Shown here: positions 35,895-61,426 of the stretch, piece by piece
Layout of the letters: the number at the start of each line of letters is the position of its first letter
Position numbering within the stretch: position 1 is the first letter of the stretch
From: Trissonchulus latispiculum
Lineage: Eukaryota; Nematoda; Enoplea; Enoplida; Ironidae
Direction of reading: 5' to 3'
Assembly: GCA_030248195.1 (NCBI GenBank)
Contig: JASAND010019932.1
Span: 1-64,000, forward strand
Length of the DNA: 64,000 bases
Program-made: the position numbers and the translations under genes
The notes under the pieces: generated by a model
What the model saw: only the letters and a program-made list of their open reading frames with translations
Database searches by the model: none
What the model was told of the DNA's origin: nothing

Positions 35895-38800
35895 GCTCTA
35901 ACTAGAGTTGTGCCGGGGCCTTGTATCGGGCCTCGGGCCGGTCACGGTCACGGCCCCGGGCCTCTTTTTCTGAGAGAGGCCCGGGCCCGGCCAGACGCTT
36001 CGGCCCGGCCCGATTCATGACCACCGGGCCTCCCGGGCCGGCCCGGGCCCGGTCAGGCCCGGGTGATGTTGGGCCTTCTAAAACGGATTTTTATTTTGTC
36101 TCAATGTTTGGCAGTGTTGAATTTACTATGGCGTTTGCGTATGTGATGTCTTATGAGGATGGTTTGTGATATAGAGAACAAGAAATGAGACATTTCATAA
36201 ACAAATTTTGCCTAAGGACCTGATTTGGTTCTGGCAAGTGTTAAAAATATTAACAGATTCGGCAATGAACTGCAGAGAATGGTAGGTTTAATGAACAGGT
36301 ATAGTCGACCGATTGGGTCTCATTAATTAATATGAATGTGGTTGGCTAGTTAAGAGATAGATAGGCTATCGCAGCGCTACCCAAAGGCTCAGAAGAATAA
36401 GTATGTTATATTGCAAACGCCTGTCTTAAAGTGGTGGTTTTTCAACTAATAAGACAGTACAATATTAAGTGACGTAATATTCTACCGAAAATGGCATGTC
36501 TAGGATTGAATCTGAAGGCCCGGGCTTTGTAACGGATCGGGCCCCAACGCCGAGAATAGAACCCGGGCCTTGTATCGGGCCTCCGGGCCGGCCCGGGTCA
36601 CGGTCACGATCGATGAAGTAGGCCCGGGTCACGGTCACGATCGATGAAGTAGGCCCGGGTCACGGTCACGATCGATGAAGTAGGCCCGGGTCACGGTCAC
36701 GATCGATGAAGTAGGCCCGGGTCACGGTCACGATCGATGAAGTAGGCCCGGGTCACGGTCACGATCGATGAAGTAGGCCCGGGTCACGGTCACGATCGAT
36801 GAAGTAGGCCCGGGTCACGGTCACGATCGATGAAGTAGGCCCGGGTCACGGTCACGATCGATGAAGTAGGCCCGGGTCACGGTCACGATCGATGAAGTAG
36901 GCCCGGGTCACGGTCACGATCGATGAAGTAGGCCCGGGTCACGGTCACGATCGATGAAGTAGGCCCGGGTCACGGTCACGATCGATGAAGTAGGCCCGGG
37001 TCACGGTCACGATCGATGAAGTAGGCCCGGGACACGGTCACGACCGATGAAGTAGGCCCGGGACACGGTCACGATCGATGAAGTAGGCCCGGGTCACGGT
37101 CACGATCGATGAAGTAGGCCCGGGTCACGGTCACGATCGATGAAGTAGGCCCGGGTCACGGTCACGATCGATGAAGTAGGCCCGGGTCACGGTCACGATC
37201 GATGAAGTAGGCCCGGGTCCCGGTCACGATCGATGAAGGAGGCCCGGGTCACGGTCACGATCGATGAAGTAGGCCCGGGTCACGGTCACGATCGATGAAG
37301 TAGGCCCGGGTCACGGTCACGATCGATGAAGTAGGACCGGGTCCCGGTCACGATCGATGAAGTAGGCGAGGGTCACGGTCACGATCGATGAAGTAGGCCC
37401 GGGTCACGGTCACGATCGATGAAGTAGGCCCTGCACACGGGAACCATCCATGAAGTAGGCGATGGTCACGGTCACGCTCGATGAAGTAGGCCCGGGTCAC
37501 GGTCACGATCGATGAAGTAGGCCCGGGTCACGGTCACGATCGATGAAGTAGGCCCGGGTCACGGTCACGATCCATCAAGTAGGCCCGGTTCACGGTCAAT
37601 ATCGATGTAGTGGCCCCGGGTCACGGTCACGATCGATGAAGTAGGCCCGGGTCACGGTCACGATCGATGAAGTAGGCCCGGGTCACGGTCACGATCGATG
37701 AAGTAGGCCCGGGTCACGGACACGATCGATGAAGTAGGCCCGGGTCACGGTCACGATCGATGAACTTGGCGCTGGTCACGGTCACGATCGATGAAGTAGG
37801 CCCGGGTCACGGTCACGATCGATGAAGTAGGCCCGGGTCACGGTCACGATCGATGAAGTAGGCCCGGGTCACGGTCACGTTCGATGCAGTTGGCCCGTGT
37901 CTCGGTCACGTTCGATGTAGTAGGCCCGGGTCACGGTCACGATCGATGAAGTAGGCCCGGGTCACGGTCACGATCGATGAAGTAGGCCCGGGTCACGGTC
38001 ACGATCGATGAAGTAGGCCCGGGTCACGGTCACGATCGATGAAGTAGGCCCGGGTCACGGTCACGATCGATGAAGTAGGCCCGGGTCACGGTCACGATCG
38101 ATGAAGTAGGCCCGGGTCACGGTCACGATCGATGAAGTAGGCCCGGGTCACGGTCACGATCGATGAAGTAGGCCCGGGTCACGGTCACGATCGATGAAGT
38201 AGGCCCGGGTCACGGTCACGATCGATGAAGTAGGCCAGGGACACGGTCACGATCGATGACGTAGGGCCGGGTCCCGGTCACGATCGATGAAGTAGGCCCG
38301 GGTCACGGTCACGATCGATGAAGTAGGCCCGGGTCACGGTCACGATCGATGAAGTAGGCCCGGGTCACGGTCACGATCGATGAAGTAGGCCCGGGTCACG
38401 GTCACGATCGATGAAGTAGGCCCGGGTCACGGTCACGATCGATGAAGTAGGCCCGGGTCACGGTCACGAGCGATGAAGTGGGCCCGGGGCACGCTCACGA
38501 CCGATGAAGTAGGCCCGGGTCACGGTCACGATCGATGAAGTAGGCCCGGGTCACGGTCACGATCGATGAAGTAGGCCCGGGTCACGGTCACGATCGATGA
38601 AGTAGGCCCGGGTCACGGTCACGATCGATGAAGTAGGCCCGGGTCACGGTCACGATCGATGAAGTAGGCCCGGGTCACGGTCACGATCGATGAAGTAGGC
38701 CCGGGTCACGGTCACGATCGATGAAGTAGGCCCGGGTCACGGTCACGATCGATGAAGTAGGCCCGGGTCACGGTCACGATCGATGACGTAGGCCCGGGTC

Positions 38801-39147
38801 ACGGTCACGATCGATGAAGTAGGCCCGGGTCACGGTCACGATCGATGAAGTAGGCCCGGGTCTCGGTCACGATCGATGAAGTAGGCCCGGGTCACGGTCA
38901 CGATCGATGAAGTAGGCCCGGGTCACGGTCACGATCGATGAAGTAGGCCCGGGTCACGGTCACGATCGATGAAGTAGGCCCGGGTCACGGTCACGATCGA
39001 TGAAGTAGGCCCGGGTCACGGTCACGATCGATGAAGTAGGCCCGGGTCACGGTCACGATCGATGAAGTAGGCCCGGGTCACGGTCACGATCGATGAAGTA
39101 GGCCCGGGCCCGGGTAAATCACTTAACGGCACAACCCTAGCTCTAAC
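35895..39147. mobile_element. hAT-like non-autonomous element filled with a 31-bp satellite
   Basis: The element 35903-39139 (3237 bp) is bracketed by perfect 8-bp duplications GCTCTAAC (35895-35902 and 39140-39147). Termini TAGAGTTGTGCCG and CGGCACAACCCTA are 13-bp inverted repeats with one mismatch, a pattern typical of hAT. The left interior is GC-rich GGCCCGGGCC words, then ~370 bp of unique AT-rich DNA (36080-36530). After that comes a second GGCCTTGTATCGGGCC block and the satellite. No transposase frame. The 82-codon frame at its left end is low-complexity. Confidence 0.85.
36590..39116. repeat. 31-bp tandem satellite, about 80 copies
   Basis: Each unit reads GATGAAGTAGGCCCGGG followed by TCACGGTCACGATC. 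It contains the palindromes CCCGGG and CGATCG and a doubled GGTCACG. Most units are identical. Variants cluster (about 37020-37060, 37200-37480, 37570-37620, 37880-37920, 38230-38270, 38470-38510). There are no unique spacers, so it is not a CRISPR-like array, and 31 bp cannot hold one reading frame. Confidence 0.97.
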
Positions 39148-46454: not shown

Positions 46455-46605
46455 TGCGAGGAGATTAATGCTATAGGAAAAGCAGGCACAAGAAATAGAT
46501 ACGTCTGATATGGAAGTTCAGCTGACGGTTCTGTGGTGTAGTGGTAAGCGCGTCTGACTACAGACCGGACGTGCTGTGGTTCGATCCCCGACCGGACGAA
46601 ATTGT
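46455..46605 (+). repeat. Diverged relative of the tRNA-like LTR (SINE-like)
   Basis: A leader (AGGAAAAGCAGGCACAAG, then GGAAGTTCAGCTGACGGT) is clearly related to the leader of the 59603-61371 LTR (AAGCAGGTATAGG, then GGGAGTTCAGCTGATGGT). A tRNA-like segment at 46526-46598 follows, with A box TGGTGTAGTGG and B box GGTTCGATCCC. The acceptor stem does not pair properly. It may be a decayed solo LTR or the SINE that founded the LTR. Confidence 0.6.
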
Positions 46606-46814
46606 TACAGTCAATTCTGTTCGATATTGAACTTCTGCCCTTTTTCAGGCACACTTCTTTTGAGGCCGTTTTCAATGGGTACTCGGGGCCTAACACCTCA
46701 CTGCTAATAGCAAGAGTCTCGCAACGGACGCACATTGAACCAACTGAGTTGTTATGTTTTCGTAGCGTAGCGCTTAAATTTATTTGAAGTGATGGGTCCA
46801 ATTTGTGGGCGGGG

Positions 46815-48622: not shown

Positions 48623-50692
48623 TGACTTAAGGACTTACTTGACTTAAGGTCTTTGGAGCAAGACGTCAGACATCCGCTGTGGCCTGTCCCCGTATGATCT
48701 GTCGCCATTGCATCCGGTCCGCTGCCAGGTCAGAAATAATGTTGACGAAGTTATTACTCCACGTGATGGCACCATAGCTATTCTTGATATGGTCCAAATC
48801 TTTAACGACCAATGTATCCCAAGTATATACATTTGGCAGCATTTCTGACACATCGCCATTCTGGAGGCTTCACATTGCGCCAAATAGAATGGCACGCACG
48901 TGAACGGTCCATTCTGGCTACATGACCCAGCCAGCGCAGTCGATGTTTTCGAGTTGTGGCTTCCACTGTTGGCTGGTTGCTGCAGCATTCACGGATGGCA
49001 TTGTTAGATAGACGCTGCATCAAGTTGACGCCCAGAATACAGCGAAGTGACGACATTTGAAAGGTCTCCAGCTTGCGAACATCTGCTCTTGTTAGGGCCC
49101 ACGTTTCAGCTGCATACAGCAGGACCGATAAAACAGCGGCATTGTAGATCTTCATTTTCAGAGAGATTGATAAATCGTTTCTCCTAAACACATGCCTTCT
49201 CAGTTGTCCGAACGTGCCAGCTGCTTTTCCAATTCGGGCTACAATGTCGTCGGACGCAGAAACCCGCTCACTGGAGATGACTGAACCAAGGTACGTAAAA
49301 GAGCTTGTAACTTCAATAGGCTCTTGATCAATAAAAAGAGCAGGCGGCGCAGGCAAGTGAAAATAGATGGCTTTGGTTTTTGTAGGTTTAATGCGCAGCC
49401 CTAGTTTCGCCGCATTCTCCGATATTCGGTTCAGTAGCAATTGGCACGATAAGGAATCAGGCTGGAGGATCGCTATGTCGTCCGCATAATCAAGGTCTGC
49501 AATTCTGTCCATAACACTGCATTGGACGCCATCTAGGTCTAGCACAGACTTCCTCAGGATCCAATCAAGGACAAAATTGAACAGCATTGGAGACAAGACA
49601 CAGCCCTGTCTCACGCCCGTTGTAATTGGAAAAGGTTGCGATAGCCCCGAGTTACATCGGACACATGAAGTTGCTCCTTCGTACATGTCCTTGAGGATGT
49701 CTGTATATATGGCAGGAATGCCACATTTCTTCAGCACGCTCCACATAGACGGGCGATCGACGCTGTCAAAAGCTGCTGCAAAGTCGATGAAACAGATGAC
49801 CGTCGGTTGTCCGTGCCGGAGTCGACGCTCGATACACCGGCGTAGCGTGAAAATTTGATCCACGCAACCACGGCCGAGACGAAAGCCAGCCTGCTGATCT
49901 CTCATTTGACGTTCGTATAGTGCAAGGAGCCGAGACCGGATAATTATTGTTAGAATTTTCCCAGCAATGGAGAGCAGTGTTATTCCGCGGTAGTTAGCGC
50001 ATTCACATTTGCTGCCCTTTTTGTGCAACGGGACGATGACACCATTTTTGAAGTCTTCGGGTACTTTTCGTAAGGTCCACACTTGACGCAGCACCTCCAC
50101 AATGACTTCGATGTTCCGGTCGTCGAGGGCTTTCAAAGCCTCAGCGCTGATTCCACATGTGCCAACAGCTTTTCGCTTTTTCAAAGCCTTCACAGCCCTT
50201 CGAACTTCGATTGCGTCAGGAGGATGTTGGTGAACACAGGCCGCCTCGATTGGAAAGTCGCGATCCAGGTCCCCATCGTGGGTAGATGGAGCCGGCCTGT
50301 TATACAATTCCGAAAAGTACTCAGTCCATCTTGCGGGGTGGTCTGCGGCGCAGTTGATTGGATTTCCGAGTGAATCATTTAAAGTAGATGGAAGACCGCC
50401 ACTTTTAGACACAGACAAATCCTTTATCAGTTTGAACAAGGATGCCAGGTTTCCGTCGTCAGCCGCCCTCTGCATTTCCTCAGCACGCTGACTCAAGTAA
50501 GCCTTCTCGTCTGCTTTGAGAGATTTCTTGATACGACGAGACAGATAATTCCTGGCGGGTCTGTGGGAGGTAGCCCTGCGCTGCGCAACCAACAATAGGG
50601 TTTCCTGCGAAATCCATTTGTGGGTTCGGCTCCGTTTTACAGGACAGACCTTGGCTACCGCGGCGTTGATCGAGTCCCTAATGAAAAACTCT
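48610..50692 (-). mobile_element. 5'-truncated non-LTR retrotransposon (LINE) with 13-bp target duplication
   Basis: The minus-strand element 48623-50679 is flanked by perfect AATGAAAAACTCT repeats (48610-48622 and 50680-50692). Its 3' end is a short repetitive tail with CTTAAGTCA units, not poly(A). The 5' endonuclease region is missing, as expected for incomplete target-primed reverse transcription. The flanks together match the related copy at 34448-34733, which lacks the insert. The reverse-transcriptase frame is intact, so the insertion looks fairly recent. RTE-like by its RLRWLGHVARM C-terminal block and non-A tail, but the clade is uncertain. Confidence 0.92.
48802..50595 (-). CDS. LINE reverse transcriptase (partial ORF2, lacks endonuclease)
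   Basis: 597 codons counted from a TTG. The frame stays open about 33 codons further upstream to ~50697, so this start is not real. It would copy LINE RNA into cDNA at nicked target DNA. RT motifs: FKNGVIVPLHKKG and NYRGITLL (~183-208), motif A VICFIDFAAAFDSVD with Asp at ~271, motif B GVRQGCVLSPMLFN (~327-340), the catalytic YADD at ~370-373, LGLRIKPTKTKA (~398-409) and TYLGSVISS (~434-442). A C-terminal HRLRWLGHVARM (~551-562) follows. The frame ends soon after PPEW. A different frame (48666-48851) then continues with LAADRMQWRQI, the sort of ending such ORFs normally have, so a frameshift or deletion has cut off the native C terminus. Confidence 0.93.
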   Translation of the reverse strand: MLVAQRRATSHRPARNYLSRRIKKSLKADEKAYLSQRAEEMQRAADDGNLASLFKLIKDLSVSKSGGLPSTLNDSLGNPINCAADHPARWTEYFSELYNRPAPSTHDGDLDRDFPIEAACVHQHPPDAIEVRRAVKALKKRKAVGTCGISAEALKALDDRNIEVIVEVLRQVWTLRKVPEDFKNGVIVPLHKKGSKCECANYRGITLLSIAGKILTIIIRSRLLALYERQMRDQQAGFRLGRGCVDQIFTLRRCIERRLRHGQPTVICFIDFAAAFDSVDRPSMWSVLKKCGIPAIYTDILKDMYEGATSCVRCNSGLSQPFPITTGVRQGCVLSPMLFNFVLDWILRKSVLDLDGVQCSVMDRIADLDYADDIAILQPDSLSCQLLLNRISENAAKLGLRIKPTKTKAIYFHLPAPPALFIDQEPIEVTSSFTYLGSVISSERVSASDDIVARIGKAAGTFGQLRRHVFRRNDLSISLKMKIYNAAVLSVLLYAAETWALTRADVRKLETFQMSSLRCILGVNLMQRLSNNAIRECCSNQPTVEATTRKHRLRWLGHVARMDRSRACHSIWRNVKPPEWRCVRNAAKCIYLGYIGR

Positions 50693-50938
50693 AATTACGT
50701 GAAATCCAAAATTTTGTATCATTTGAACTCAACGTGGTCGAAAGCATACCCACATCAAACGTTAGCTTGGTTGGACTGGTCAAGTTTTATTCTAAGCACC
50801 GGGCGGATCAATCTGAACAAAATCCCATAATATATATACTAATATTTATGGTATACAGTAAAATATTGTACTAGTAGCAACTCTTGATATTACATACAAT
50901 ATTATTTACATTATTTACTATGTATATATATATGTATA
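50693..50938. other. Right part of the LINE target repeat, then TA-rich sequence
   Basis: ATTTGAACTCAACGTGGTCG at about 50720-50740 matches 34650-34670 and completes the interrupted repeat. TATATA-rich sequence follows. Confidence 0.6.
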
Positions 50939-59230: not shown

Positions 59231-59602
59231 CATAAATCAAGGTTCAGCAAAATGACCAAACAATGTACTCCCCCTAAGTTAGTTCCCTACTACAATAGTG
59301 CCCGTAATGTTGTGATCTGTTGCAGAAATAAAAAATCAAAAATCGAATCAAAAATCACTATTTTAGAAATCTGAATCGAATCGCAGATTGTTCAGAATGG
59401 GGAAAATCGAACTGCATCGAATCGTTTCTAATTTTAGTGGAAGTAAATCGAACTGAATCGAATCGTATATATCTGAGAAATAGAAAAACTGAACTGAATC
59501 GAATCGAACATAAAATAGCTGAATCAATACAACCCTAATACATAATTAAGATGATGCTAAAATGGTCAAATTAGCGCCACCAGACCGGAACGGAGTGCAA
59601 AC

Positions 59603-59888
59603 TGTAAGGGAAGCAGGTATAGGAAAGATTGATAAGCCTGCAATGGGAGTTCAGCTGATGGTCCCGTGGTGTAGTGGTTTAGCATGTCTGACTCTAGAGC
59701 AGAAGGGCCGTGGTTCGATCCCCGGCGGGACCAATTCTTTACTTTCAATGGTGAGTGAAAAGCTGAACCTCCCTCTTCCCTTCTCTCTTCTAGGTCCTGG
59801 TTTCGTGGGTACGAGGGTGCCTGACGCCTCCCGTTCGGGCTTGTCCTTGGTTTCTTCCTGATCCGCCAGCCCTGGTAGAAGCGCTACA
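59603..59888 (+). repeat. TRIM LTR 1
   Basis: 286 bp, TG..CA. It differs from LTRs 2-4 at a few sites (for example GTACGAGGG versus GTACTAGGG, and GATCCGCCAG versus GATCCACCAA). Confidence 0.75.
59660..59733 (+). tRNA. tRNA-like sequence in LTR 1 (likely pseudo-tRNA / Pol III promoter)
   Basis: 74 nt with a perfect 7-bp acceptor stem (GGTCCCG/CGGGACC), D stem GTGT/GCAT with wobble pairs and A box TGGTGTAGTGG. The anticodon stem is TCTGA/GCAGA with one mismatch, and the loop CTCTAGA gives anticodon CUA. B box GGTTCGATCCC is present. The T stem has two mismatches. It is probably tRNA-derived rather than a working tRNA. Confidence 0.45.
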
Positions 59889-60099
59889 TGTGGCGAGGCT
59901 GCCAGGAGGACCCGGATTGGACTCCTGTCTCCGGTCCCCCAGTAGTTGCTTCTGGTTGGTTGGATCCAAAGGGGCCTGGAACGTGTGTCGGGGGAGCACG
60001 GATCCCTTGGGCTCAGAATGCCCTGCGCTGGATGCGCTCTCGGTTCGATTCCGAGTTGAGTAAGCCGCGGGACGCGTCTTAATTGAAACCCGGGGGAGA
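59889..60099 (+). other. TRIM internal region 1
   Basis: 211 bp, no open frame of note. It has a PBS-like start, a second B-box-like GGTTCGATTCC near 60043, and the PPT-like GAAACCCGGGGGAGA at the end. It is 4 bp longer than the others (GGAGGACC and GGTTGGTTGG variants). Confidence 0.65.
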
Positions 60100-60385
60100 T
60101 GTAAGGGAAGCAGGTATAGGAAAGATTGATAAGCCTGCAATGGGAGTTCAGCTGATGGTCCCGTGGTGTAGTGGTTTAGCATGTCTGACTCTAGAGCAGA
60201 AGGGCCGTGGTTCGATCCCCGGCGGGACCAATTCTTTACTTTCAATGGTGAGTGAAAAGCTGAACCTCCCTCTTCCCTTCTCTCTTCTAGGTCCTGGTTT
60301 CGTGGGTACTAGGGTGCCTGACGCCTCCCGTTCGGGCTTGTCCTTGGTTTCTTCCTGATCCACCAACCCTGGTAGAAGCGCTACA
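60100..60385 (+). repeat. TRIM LTR 2
   Basis: 286 bp; appears identical to LTR 3 by eye. Confidence 0.75.
60157..60230 (+). tRNA. tRNA-like sequence in LTR 2
   Basis: Same 74-nt sequence as in LTR 1: intact A and B boxes, CUA in the anticodon position, imperfect T stem. Confidence 0.45.
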
Positions 60386-60592
60386 TGTGGCGAGGCTGCC
60401 TCAGGACCCGGATTGGACTCCTGTCTCCGGTCCCCCAGTAGTTGCTTCTTGGTTGGATCCAAAGGGGCCTGGAACGTGTGTCGGGGGAGCACGGATCCCT
60501 TGGGCTCAGAATGCCCTGCGCTGGATGCGCTCTCGGTTCGATTCCGAGTTGAGTAAGCCGCGGGACGCGTCTTAATTGAAACCCGGGGGAGA
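60386..60592 (+). other. TRIM internal region 2
   Basis: 207 bp between LTR 2 and LTR 3, with the same PBS-like and PPT-like ends. Confidence 0.65.
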
Positions 60593-60878
60593 TGTAAGGG
60601 AAGCAGGTATAGGAAAGATTGATAAGCCTGCAATGGGAGTTCAGCTGATGGTCCCGTGGTGTAGTGGTTTAGCATGTCTGACTCTAGAGCAGAAGGGCCG
60701 TGGTTCGATCCCCGGCGGGACCAATTCTTTACTTTCAATGGTGAGTGAAAAGCTGAACCTCCCTCTTCCCTTCTCTCTTCTAGGTCCTGGTTTCGTGGGT
60801 ACTAGGGTGCCTGACGCCTCCCGTTCGGGCTTGTCCTTGGTTTCTTCCTGATCCACCAACCCTGGTAGAAGCGCTACA
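60593..60878 (+). repeat. TRIM LTR 3
   Basis: 286 bp, TG..CA. Confidence 0.75.
60650..60723 (+). tRNA. tRNA-like sequence in LTR 3
   Basis: Same 74-nt tRNA-like block, starting 58 bp into the LTR as in every copy. Confidence 0.45.
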
Positions 60879-61085
60879 TGTGGCGAGGCTGCCTCAGGAC
60901 CCGGATTGGACTCCTGTCTCCGGTCCCCCAGTAGTTGCTTCTTGGTTGGATCCAAAGGGGCCTGGAACGTGTGTCGGGGGAGCACGGATCCCTTGGGCTC
61001 AGAATGCCCTGCGCTGGATGCGCTCTCGGTTCGATTCCGAGTTGAGTAAGCCGCGGGACGCGTCTTAATTGAAACCCGGGGGAGA
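60879..61085 (+). other. TRIM internal region 3
   Basis: 207 bp; appears identical to internal region 2. Confidence 0.65.
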
Positions 61086-61371
61086 TGTAAGGGAAGCAGG
61101 TATAGGAAAGATTGATAAGCCTGCAATGGGAGTTCAGCTGATGGTCCCGTGGTGTAGTGGTTTAGCATGTCTGACTCTAGAGCAGAAGGGCCGTGGTTCG
61201 ATCCCCGGCGGGACCAATTCTTTACTTTCAATGGTGAGTGAAAAGCTGAACCTCCCTCTTCCCTTCTCTCTTCTAGGTCCTGGTTTCGTGGGTACTAGGG
61301 TGCCTGACGCCTCCCGTTCGGGCTTGTCCTTGGTTTCTTCCTGATCCACCAACCCTGGTAGAAGCGCTACA
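61086..61371 (+). repeat. TRIM LTR 4 (3' end of array)
   Basis: 286 bp. The homology ends exactly at GCTACA, where host sequence AAACTAATG begins. Confidence 0.75.
61143..61216 (+). tRNA. tRNA-like sequence in LTR 4
   Basis: Same 74-nt block with A and B boxes intact. Confidence 0.45.
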
Positions 61372-61426
61372 AAACTAATGACTATTTATTGTCACTAATT
61401 TCCGTAAGATCGTAAGATCATCGTGG

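What the first reader, a model, noticed from the sequence alone, without database searches (positions are those of the whole stretch)
59603..61371. Miniature LTR retrotransposon whose LTR contains a tRNA-type Pol III promoter
Four 286-bp TG..CA repeats alternate with ~207-bp internal segments that have PBS-like and PPT-like ends. The whole is flanked by AAAC. Each LTR has, at offset 58, a 74-nt tRNA-like block with intact A (TGGTGTAGTGG) and B (GGTTCGATCCC) boxes. Plant Cassandra TRIMs carry a 5S rRNA promoter in their LTRs; an animal element with a tRNA promoter in its LTR would be a parallel solution. In this design Pol III, not Pol II, might drive the transcript from inside the LTR.
Basis: partly seen in the sequence, partly recalled or inferred. 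Interest (0 to 1): 0.88.

Follow-up and report, generated by a model that had tools for sequence, protein, structure and literature searches.

The report
Mini retrotransposon with tRNA-type promoter
This is a family of tiny retrotransposons without genes of their own, whose end repeats carry a tRNA-like promoter; such elements were described in 2024 under the name Helenus, so this is a well-documented new family of a known kind.

Summary
Window 59603-61371 is LTR-int-LTR-int-LTR-int-LTR: four 286-bp TG..CA LTRs, internals of 211, 207 and 207 bp, flanked by AAAC. Each LTR has a 74-nt Rfam tRNA match at offset 58. The first 25 bases of the LTR occur 1,585 times, control 0. The primer-binding site is complementary over 17 nt to host tRNA-Arg(ACG) 3' ends. 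Within the tRNA block, A and B boxes are better conserved than the rest; the cloverleaf shows no covariation beyond shuffles. It looks like a promoter, not a tRNA. But the "parallel to Cassandra" is in print: Helenus (TRIMp3), Kojima 2024, PMC10886601, with tRNA-like LTRs, 4-bp duplications in animals, Gypsy-type primer sites and tandem arrays. This is a new Helenus family, unless Repbase already lists it, which I could not check. Pol III transcription is inferred, not shown; the host species was not identified.

The parts
59599..59602 (.). target site duplication AAAC, left copy
59603..59888 (+). LTR 1 (286 bp, TG..CA); differs from LTRs 2-4 at LTR positions 211, 263, 267
59660..59733 (+). 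tRNA-like block of LTR 1 (Rfam RF00005, 49.8 bits); A box 59667-59677, B box 59712-59722
59735..59740 (+). TTCTTT just after the tRNA block: possible weak Pol III terminator (inference; that such sites can act is recalled, not from a call)
   Evidence: sequence; no TTTT run in the unit
59889..60099 (+). internal domain 1 (211 bp)
59891..59907 (+). PBS TGGCGAGGCTGCCAGGA, complementary over 17 nt to host tRNA-Arg(ACG) 3' end plus CCA
60092..60099 (+). polypurine tract GGGGGAGA before LTR 2
60100..60385 (+). LTR 2; tRNA-like block 60157-60230
60386..60592 (+). internal domain 2 (207 bp); PBS 60388-60400 (13-nt match), PPT 60585-60592
60593..60878 (+). LTR 3; tRNA-like block 60650-60723
60879..61085 (+). 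internal domain 3 (207 bp, identical to internal 2); PBS 60881-60893, PPT 61078-61085
61086..61371 (+). LTR 4; tRNA-like block 61143-61216
61372..61375 (.). target site duplication AAAC, right copy
46480..46699 (+). diverged relative of the LTR (76% over LTR positions 9-147), A and B boxes kept; right end not definable

Best explanation
A non-autonomous LTR retrotransposon without recognisable genes (TRIM), of the Helenus / TRIMp3 type. Shown here: it inserts with 4-bp target duplications; it has a PBS for host tRNA-Arg(ACG) and a GGGGGAGA polypurine tract; it forms solo LTRs and tandem arrays; its LTR carries a tRNA-derived block whose A and B boxes are better kept than the rest of that block. 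Inferred: RNA polymerase III binds the A/B boxes in one LTR, starts near LTR offset 58, reads through U5 and the internal domain, and stops in the next LTR, perhaps at the weak TTCTTT just past the tRNA block, giving an RNA whose R region is roughly the tRNA-like block. A Gypsy-type element supplies reverse transcriptase and integrase in trans. The four-LTR array grew by recombination (unequal exchange, or one-LTR circles joining the resident copy) after the AAAC insertion, since units 2-3 are identical while LTR1 plus internal 1 belong to another subtype.
For: 4-bp TSD in 31 of 45 end-complete copies against 18 of 1980 mismatched pairs: LTR-int-LTR 21 of 26, solo LTR 6 of 14, longer arrays 4 of 5. 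No 5-bp TSD in 37 rows, redundant rows included. PBS TGGCGAGGCTGCCAGGA is the reverse complement of TCCTGGCAGCCTCG + CCA; that 3' end is present in 4 of the 5 tRNA-Arg(ACG) genes that ARAGORN finds on C7315:1-3000. 40 of 40 internals end in CCCGGGGGAGA. LTR 5' end: 1,585 exact genomic copies, control 0. 51 distinct tRNA blocks: A box 0.964, B box 0.939, rest of block 0.866 mean column identity, column permutation p 0.003. AATAAA and ATTAAA are absent from 85 of 85 LTRs. No cloverleaf covariation beyond shuffles. Two 217-aa stop-free frames in the array have no Pfam match. The published class has the same set of traits.
Against: No transcript, ChIP or small-RNA data were available. U3 (0.922) and the 19 bp after the block (0.928) are about as conserved as the B box (0.938) in the 19 diverged LTRs, and among 66 windows of 11 columns in the block the A box ranks 3rd but the B box only 17th. 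Absence of TTTT in the unit is not significant (expected 1.5, P(0)=0.21), and 7 of 85 LTRs have such a run. A related solo LTR (L013) has several T-runs in U5. Absence of two hexamers from a 286-bp LTR is weak evidence. No autonomous partner was found. 14 of 45 copies lack an exact TSD; 5 of these (in L022 twice, L036, L088, L098) are pieces of larger arrays by their flanks.
Confidence: 0.85

Rival explanations
1. A Pol II-driven TRIM with an inert tRNA or SINE remnant in its LTR. The element is mobilised as above, but the tRNA block does nothing.
For: No RNA data. U3 is as conserved as the B box in diverged LTRs. T-runs in some relatives would stop Pol III early.
Against: A and B boxes are kept better than the rest of the block. 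AATAAA, ATTAAA and TATAAA are each absent from 85 of 85 LTRs, which is weak, since other Pol II signals were not examined.
Confidence: 0.12
2. A tandem repeat (satellite) that happens to contain a SINE or tRNA gene, with no LTR retrotransposition.
For: Four near-identical LTR units head to tail in the window.
Against: Single LTR-int-LTR copies and solo LTRs with 4-bp TSDs at other loci; PBS matching a host tRNA; fixed PPT.
Confidence: 0.01
3. A functional tRNA gene array, for instance an amber suppressor tRNA (anticodon CTA).
For: Rfam 49.8 bits, ARAGORN CTA. 88.2% of cells pair in the cloverleaf against 39-50% when partners are slid, which common descent alone would also give.
Against: The closing pair of the anticodon stem is unpaired in 46 of 49 distinct blocks with letters on both sides, acceptor pair 6 in 22 of 51, and no measure exceeds the shuffles clearly. 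Anticodons vary among copies: CTA, CGG and CCG by ARAGORN.
Confidence: 0.02

Closest known systems
Helenus (TRIMp3), Kojima 2024, PMC10886601
   Same: Short non-autonomous LTR element, tRNA-like sequence with A and B boxes in the LTR, PBS for a host tRNA 3' end (tRNA-Arg is among those reported in wasps), PPT, 4-bp TSD in animals, solo LTRs, tandem arrays reported for LTR-11_DR, mostly no functional tRNA (parts 1-5 of 6 read).
   Different: Not compared by sequence with the published families, because the supplements and Repbase were not open here. Host species not identified, so whether the animal phylum is new is open.
Cassandra (plant TRIM with 5S rRNA in the LTR)
   Same: Pol III-type promoter inside the LTR; tandem arrays of LTR and internal domain (PMC7215508, passages only).
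   Different: 5S rRNA-derived instead of tRNA-derived.
biv-TRIM (bivalves), PMC6934838
   Same: Animal TRIM, solo and tandem forms, PPT GGGGAGA (part 1 of 5 read).
   Different: 77-80 bp internal domain, 202-218 bp repeats, no PBS unambiguously identified; no tRNA-like block described in the part read.
ta-TRIM of taeniid cestodes, PMC4558846
   Same: Animal TRIM with LTR promoters (passages only).
   Different: Reported among polyadenylated RNAs; no tRNA block in the passages seen.

Membership tests
Helenus / TRIMp3 | tRNA-derived sequence with A and B boxes inside the LTR | tested here: met
   Rfam RF00005 at 49.8 bits in 4 of 4 window LTRs; A/B boxes across 51 distinct blocks
Helenus / TRIMp3 | two LTRs around a short non-coding internal domain (published total 311-1263 bp) | tested here: met
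   LTR-int-LTR about 780 bp. Stop-free frames of up to 217 aa exist in the array; the two of 217 aa have no Pfam match at E 0.1; the shorter ones were not searched.
Helenus / TRIMp3 | PBS complementary to a host tRNA next to the 5' LTR | tested here: met
   17 nt to tRNA-Arg(ACG) in 10 of 40 internals, including the first of the window; 13 nt in 18 of 40; 12 of 40 carry further changes
Helenus / TRIMp3 | PPT at the 3' end of the internal domain | tested here: met
   CCCGGGGGAGA in 40 of 40 internals
Helenus / TRIMp3 | 4-bp TSD (animal Helenus) | tested here: met
   31 of 45 exact, control 18 of 1980
Helenus / TRIMp3 | transcription by RNA polymerase III | not testable with these tools
   no RNA data; the paper itself says it is not validated for Helenus
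Helenus / TRIMp3 | mobilised by a Gypsy element with the same PBS | not tested
   the partner search with the internal domain did not complete
Functional tRNA gene | intact cloverleaf with compensatory changes | tested here: not met
   closing anticodon pair open in 46 of 49; covariation score 0.110 against 0.112 in shuffles; slid versions are lower, as descent alone would give
Cassandra | 5S rRNA sequence in the LTR | tested here: not met
   Rfam scans of the array give tRNA and no 5S rRNA

The most novel reading that the evidence does not exclude
The tRNA-like block itself is the R region: Pol III starts at its 5' edge in one LTR and stops at the weak TTCTTT just past it in the next LTR. If so, first-strand transfer runs on a tRNA-shaped repeat, and multi-LTR arrays like this one act as Pol III read-through units that can seed new copies of different length.
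Probability: 0.2. Interest if true: 0.5.

Novelty: new member of a known kind. Interest (0 to 1): 0.3.

Why it matters
It adds an abundant family, with many near-identical copies, to a class described in 2024 whose key claim, Pol III transcription of a tRNA-type LTR element, the describing paper says is not yet validated. Near-identical copies, solo LTRs and arrays in one genome make it a practical test case. It also warns that tRNA finders can report such LTRs as tRNA genes (here 'tRNA-Pyl', CTA).

Tried and rejected
Turnover of the tRNA block between the two LTRs of one element: suggested by L016 and L017, but over 21 TSD-verified LTR-int-LTR copies 28 of 79 substitutions fall in the block against 20.4 expected, and 19 of 70 against 18.1 without L017.

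Selection against TTTT as proof of Pol III: not significant (expected 1.5 by first-order Markov resampling, P(0)=0.21).

Second B-box-like motif in the internal domain: ranks only 180 of 200 windows in conservation; treated as incidental. Hairpin-loop inversion of the anticodon loop (note): more diverse copies also allow plain indels; not claimed.

Cloverleaf under selection: the pair of columns 3 and 73 (UA 26, CG 17) looked compensatory, but the whole structure does not beat shuffles. For that count I dropped 5 of the 56 distinct blocks: L011:2151, L062:1021, L089:1173, L086:1277 and L087:1034, as truncated, rearranged or deleted.

Host identity: the LINE protein search (120 of 1094 hits listed) gives unnamed metagenome hits first, then named ones from flatworms, snails, amphioxus and a nematode, and two labelled as bacterial MAGs; a search with part of a window gene gave nothing. 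The COX1 search did not complete. Viral-contig pattern scan: 18 loci, none with a blastn match to the LTR or internal.

Full report
What is there. Window 59603-61371 holds four direct repeats of 286 bp, each beginning TGTAAGG and ending GCGCTACA, separated by internal segments of 211, 207 and 207 bp. LTRs 2, 3 and 4 are identical; LTR 1 differs at three positions, and internal 1 is a slightly different subtype. AAAC stands directly on both sides. Each LTR contains at offset 58 a 74-nt match to the Rfam tRNA family at 49.8 bits, gathering score 29, read by ARAGORN as anticodon CTA. Stop-free frames in the array reach 217 aa; the two longest have no Pfam match. A LINE reverse transcriptase elsewhere in the window is most like unnamed metagenome sequences and then like named animal ones; the host is probably an animal (inference), but it was not identified.

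Is it a retrotransposon? The window lies in an assembly of 733.8 Mb in 21,732 contigs. A search with the LTR named 1,931 first-look candidates, of which 40 were scored, giving 41 matches; one with the diverged copy at 46470-46760 named 1,000, of which 40 were scored, giving 42 matches. The first 25 bases of the LTR occur exactly 1,585 times, against 0 for the reversed control; this counts LTRs, not elements, and the assembly probably holds some loci twice (L019 and L035). In the loci fetched I found solo LTRs, single LTR-int-LTR copies, and arrays with three, four and five LTRs. Among 45 distinct copies with both outer LTR ends inside a locus, 31 have an exact 4-bp duplication at the ends: 21 of 26 LTR-int-LTR, 6 of 14 solo LTRs, and 4 of 5 longer arrays. 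Pairing the left flank of one copy with the right flank of another gives 18 matches in 1,980. Of the 14 misses, 5 are pieces of larger arrays, in which a flank is the start of an internal domain (L022 twice, L036, L088, L098). No 5-bp duplication was seen in 37 rows. The loci are the best scorers of two searches, the first hits of one pattern scan and stretches taken from the first hit list, not a random sample; copies lacking an outer LTR end, or too close to a locus end, were left out before the count and not tallied.

Priming. The first internal domain starts TG-TGGCGAGGCTGCCAGGA. The reverse complement of the last 17 bases is TCCTGGCAGCCTCG plus CCA. TCCTGGCAGCCTCG occurs 235 times in the genome, control 0; 9 of the 10 loci fetched there contain an LTR of the family. 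On C7315:1-3000, ARAGORN finds five tRNA-Arg(ACG) genes, and four of the five carry exactly this 3' end. Among 40 internals, 10 have the 17-nt PBS, 18 a 13-nt match, and 12 further changes, 8 of them one and the same variant. All 40 end in CCCGGGGGAGA before the next LTR. Both ends are as expected for LTR-type reverse transcription.

What the tRNA block does. 51 distinct blocks (of 56 seen; 5 rearranged, truncated or deleted ones dropped) were aligned. The A box keeps 0.964 and the B box 0.939 mean column identity, against 0.866 for the rest of the block; a permutation of columns reaches this in 0.27% of trials. As single windows, the A box ranks 3rd and the B box 17th of 66. The cloverleaf is not supported as selected: 88.2% of cells pair (shuffles 89.1%), covariation 0.110 (shuffles 0.112); the slid controls are lower (39-50% paired), as common descent alone would give; the closing anticodon pair is open in 46 of 49. 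Anticodons differ among copies (CTA, CGG, CCG). Some relatives carry an arm like that of tRNA-Arg(CCG) (recalled resemblance; L017 is called Arg-CCG), so CTA in the window is most likely drift (inference). AATAAA, ATTAAA and TATAAA are absent from 85 of 85 LTRs. Together this favours a promoter role for Pol III over a tRNA role. It is not proof: U3 and the stretch after the block are as well kept as the B box in the 19 diverged LTRs, and lack of TTTT in the unit is not significant.

How it most likely works. Shown: insertion with 4-bp duplications, PBS, PPT, solo LTRs and arrays. Inferred: Pol III starts near LTR offset 58 and reads through to the next LTR; proteins of a Gypsy element do the rest; arrays grow by recombination after insertion. 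In the window array, two identical units sit beside a unit of another subtype inside one AAAC pair, which fits recombination rather than one insertion event. No autonomous partner was found, because that search did not complete.

What is known. Kojima 2024 (PMC10886601; parts 1-5 of 6 read) describes Helenus: short non-autonomous LTR elements of fungi, animals and one plant with a tRNA-like sequence in the LTR, PBS and PPT, 4-bp duplications in animals, Gypsy-like PBS in animals, solo LTRs, tandem arrays of the zebrafish family, and in most families no functional tRNA; with Cassandra and Ajax they are called TRIMp3. Each defining feature that I could test is met here. Two paper searches listed no later study of Helenus or TRIMp3 that I could recognise from titles and abstract starts. 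Whether this very family is in Repbase could not be checked.

Verdict. Observation confirmed, mechanism reading well supported except for the transcription step, novelty low: a new family of a known kind.

Noticed in passing
window 36590-39108: 31-bp satellite GGCCCGGGTCACGGTCACGATCGATGAAGTA, about 81 copies, 96% matches.
   Followed up: no
window 48802-50694, minus strand: 630-aa open frame with a reverse transcriptase domain (Pfam RVT_1); best hit 60% identical in an unnamed metagenome contig, named hits in flatworms, snails, amphioxus and a nematode.
   Followed up: partly
window 46480-46699: Old, diverged relative of the LTR with intact B box.
   Followed up: partly
L013 2252-2560, minus strand: Solo LTR of a related subfamily, flanked by CCAG on both sides (read by eye); LTR flanks close to the window LTR but the tRNA block more different, with T-runs in U5.
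   Followed up: partly
L017 1005-1290 and 1501-1786: The two LTRs of one TSD-flanked element differ at 9 positions, all inside the tRNA block; perhaps a conversion patch.
   Followed up: partly
L036 1845-3643: Head-to-head inverted dimer of the element: LTR-int-LTR-int, about 25 bp, then a reversed LTR-int-LTR, with CAAG at both outer flanks (flanks read by eye).
   Followed up: no
L099 (contig C7315) 350-2702: Cluster of five tRNA-Arg(ACG) genes in 3 kb.
   Followed up: partly
L019/L020 and L035: Contigs C6917 and C1129 hold an insertion with the same flanks: the assembly probably keeps two haplotypes of it.
   Followed up: no
window 60042, 60535, 61028: A second B-box-like T-arm (CTCGGTTCGATTCCGAG) in each internal domain; not specially conserved.
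   Followed up: yes
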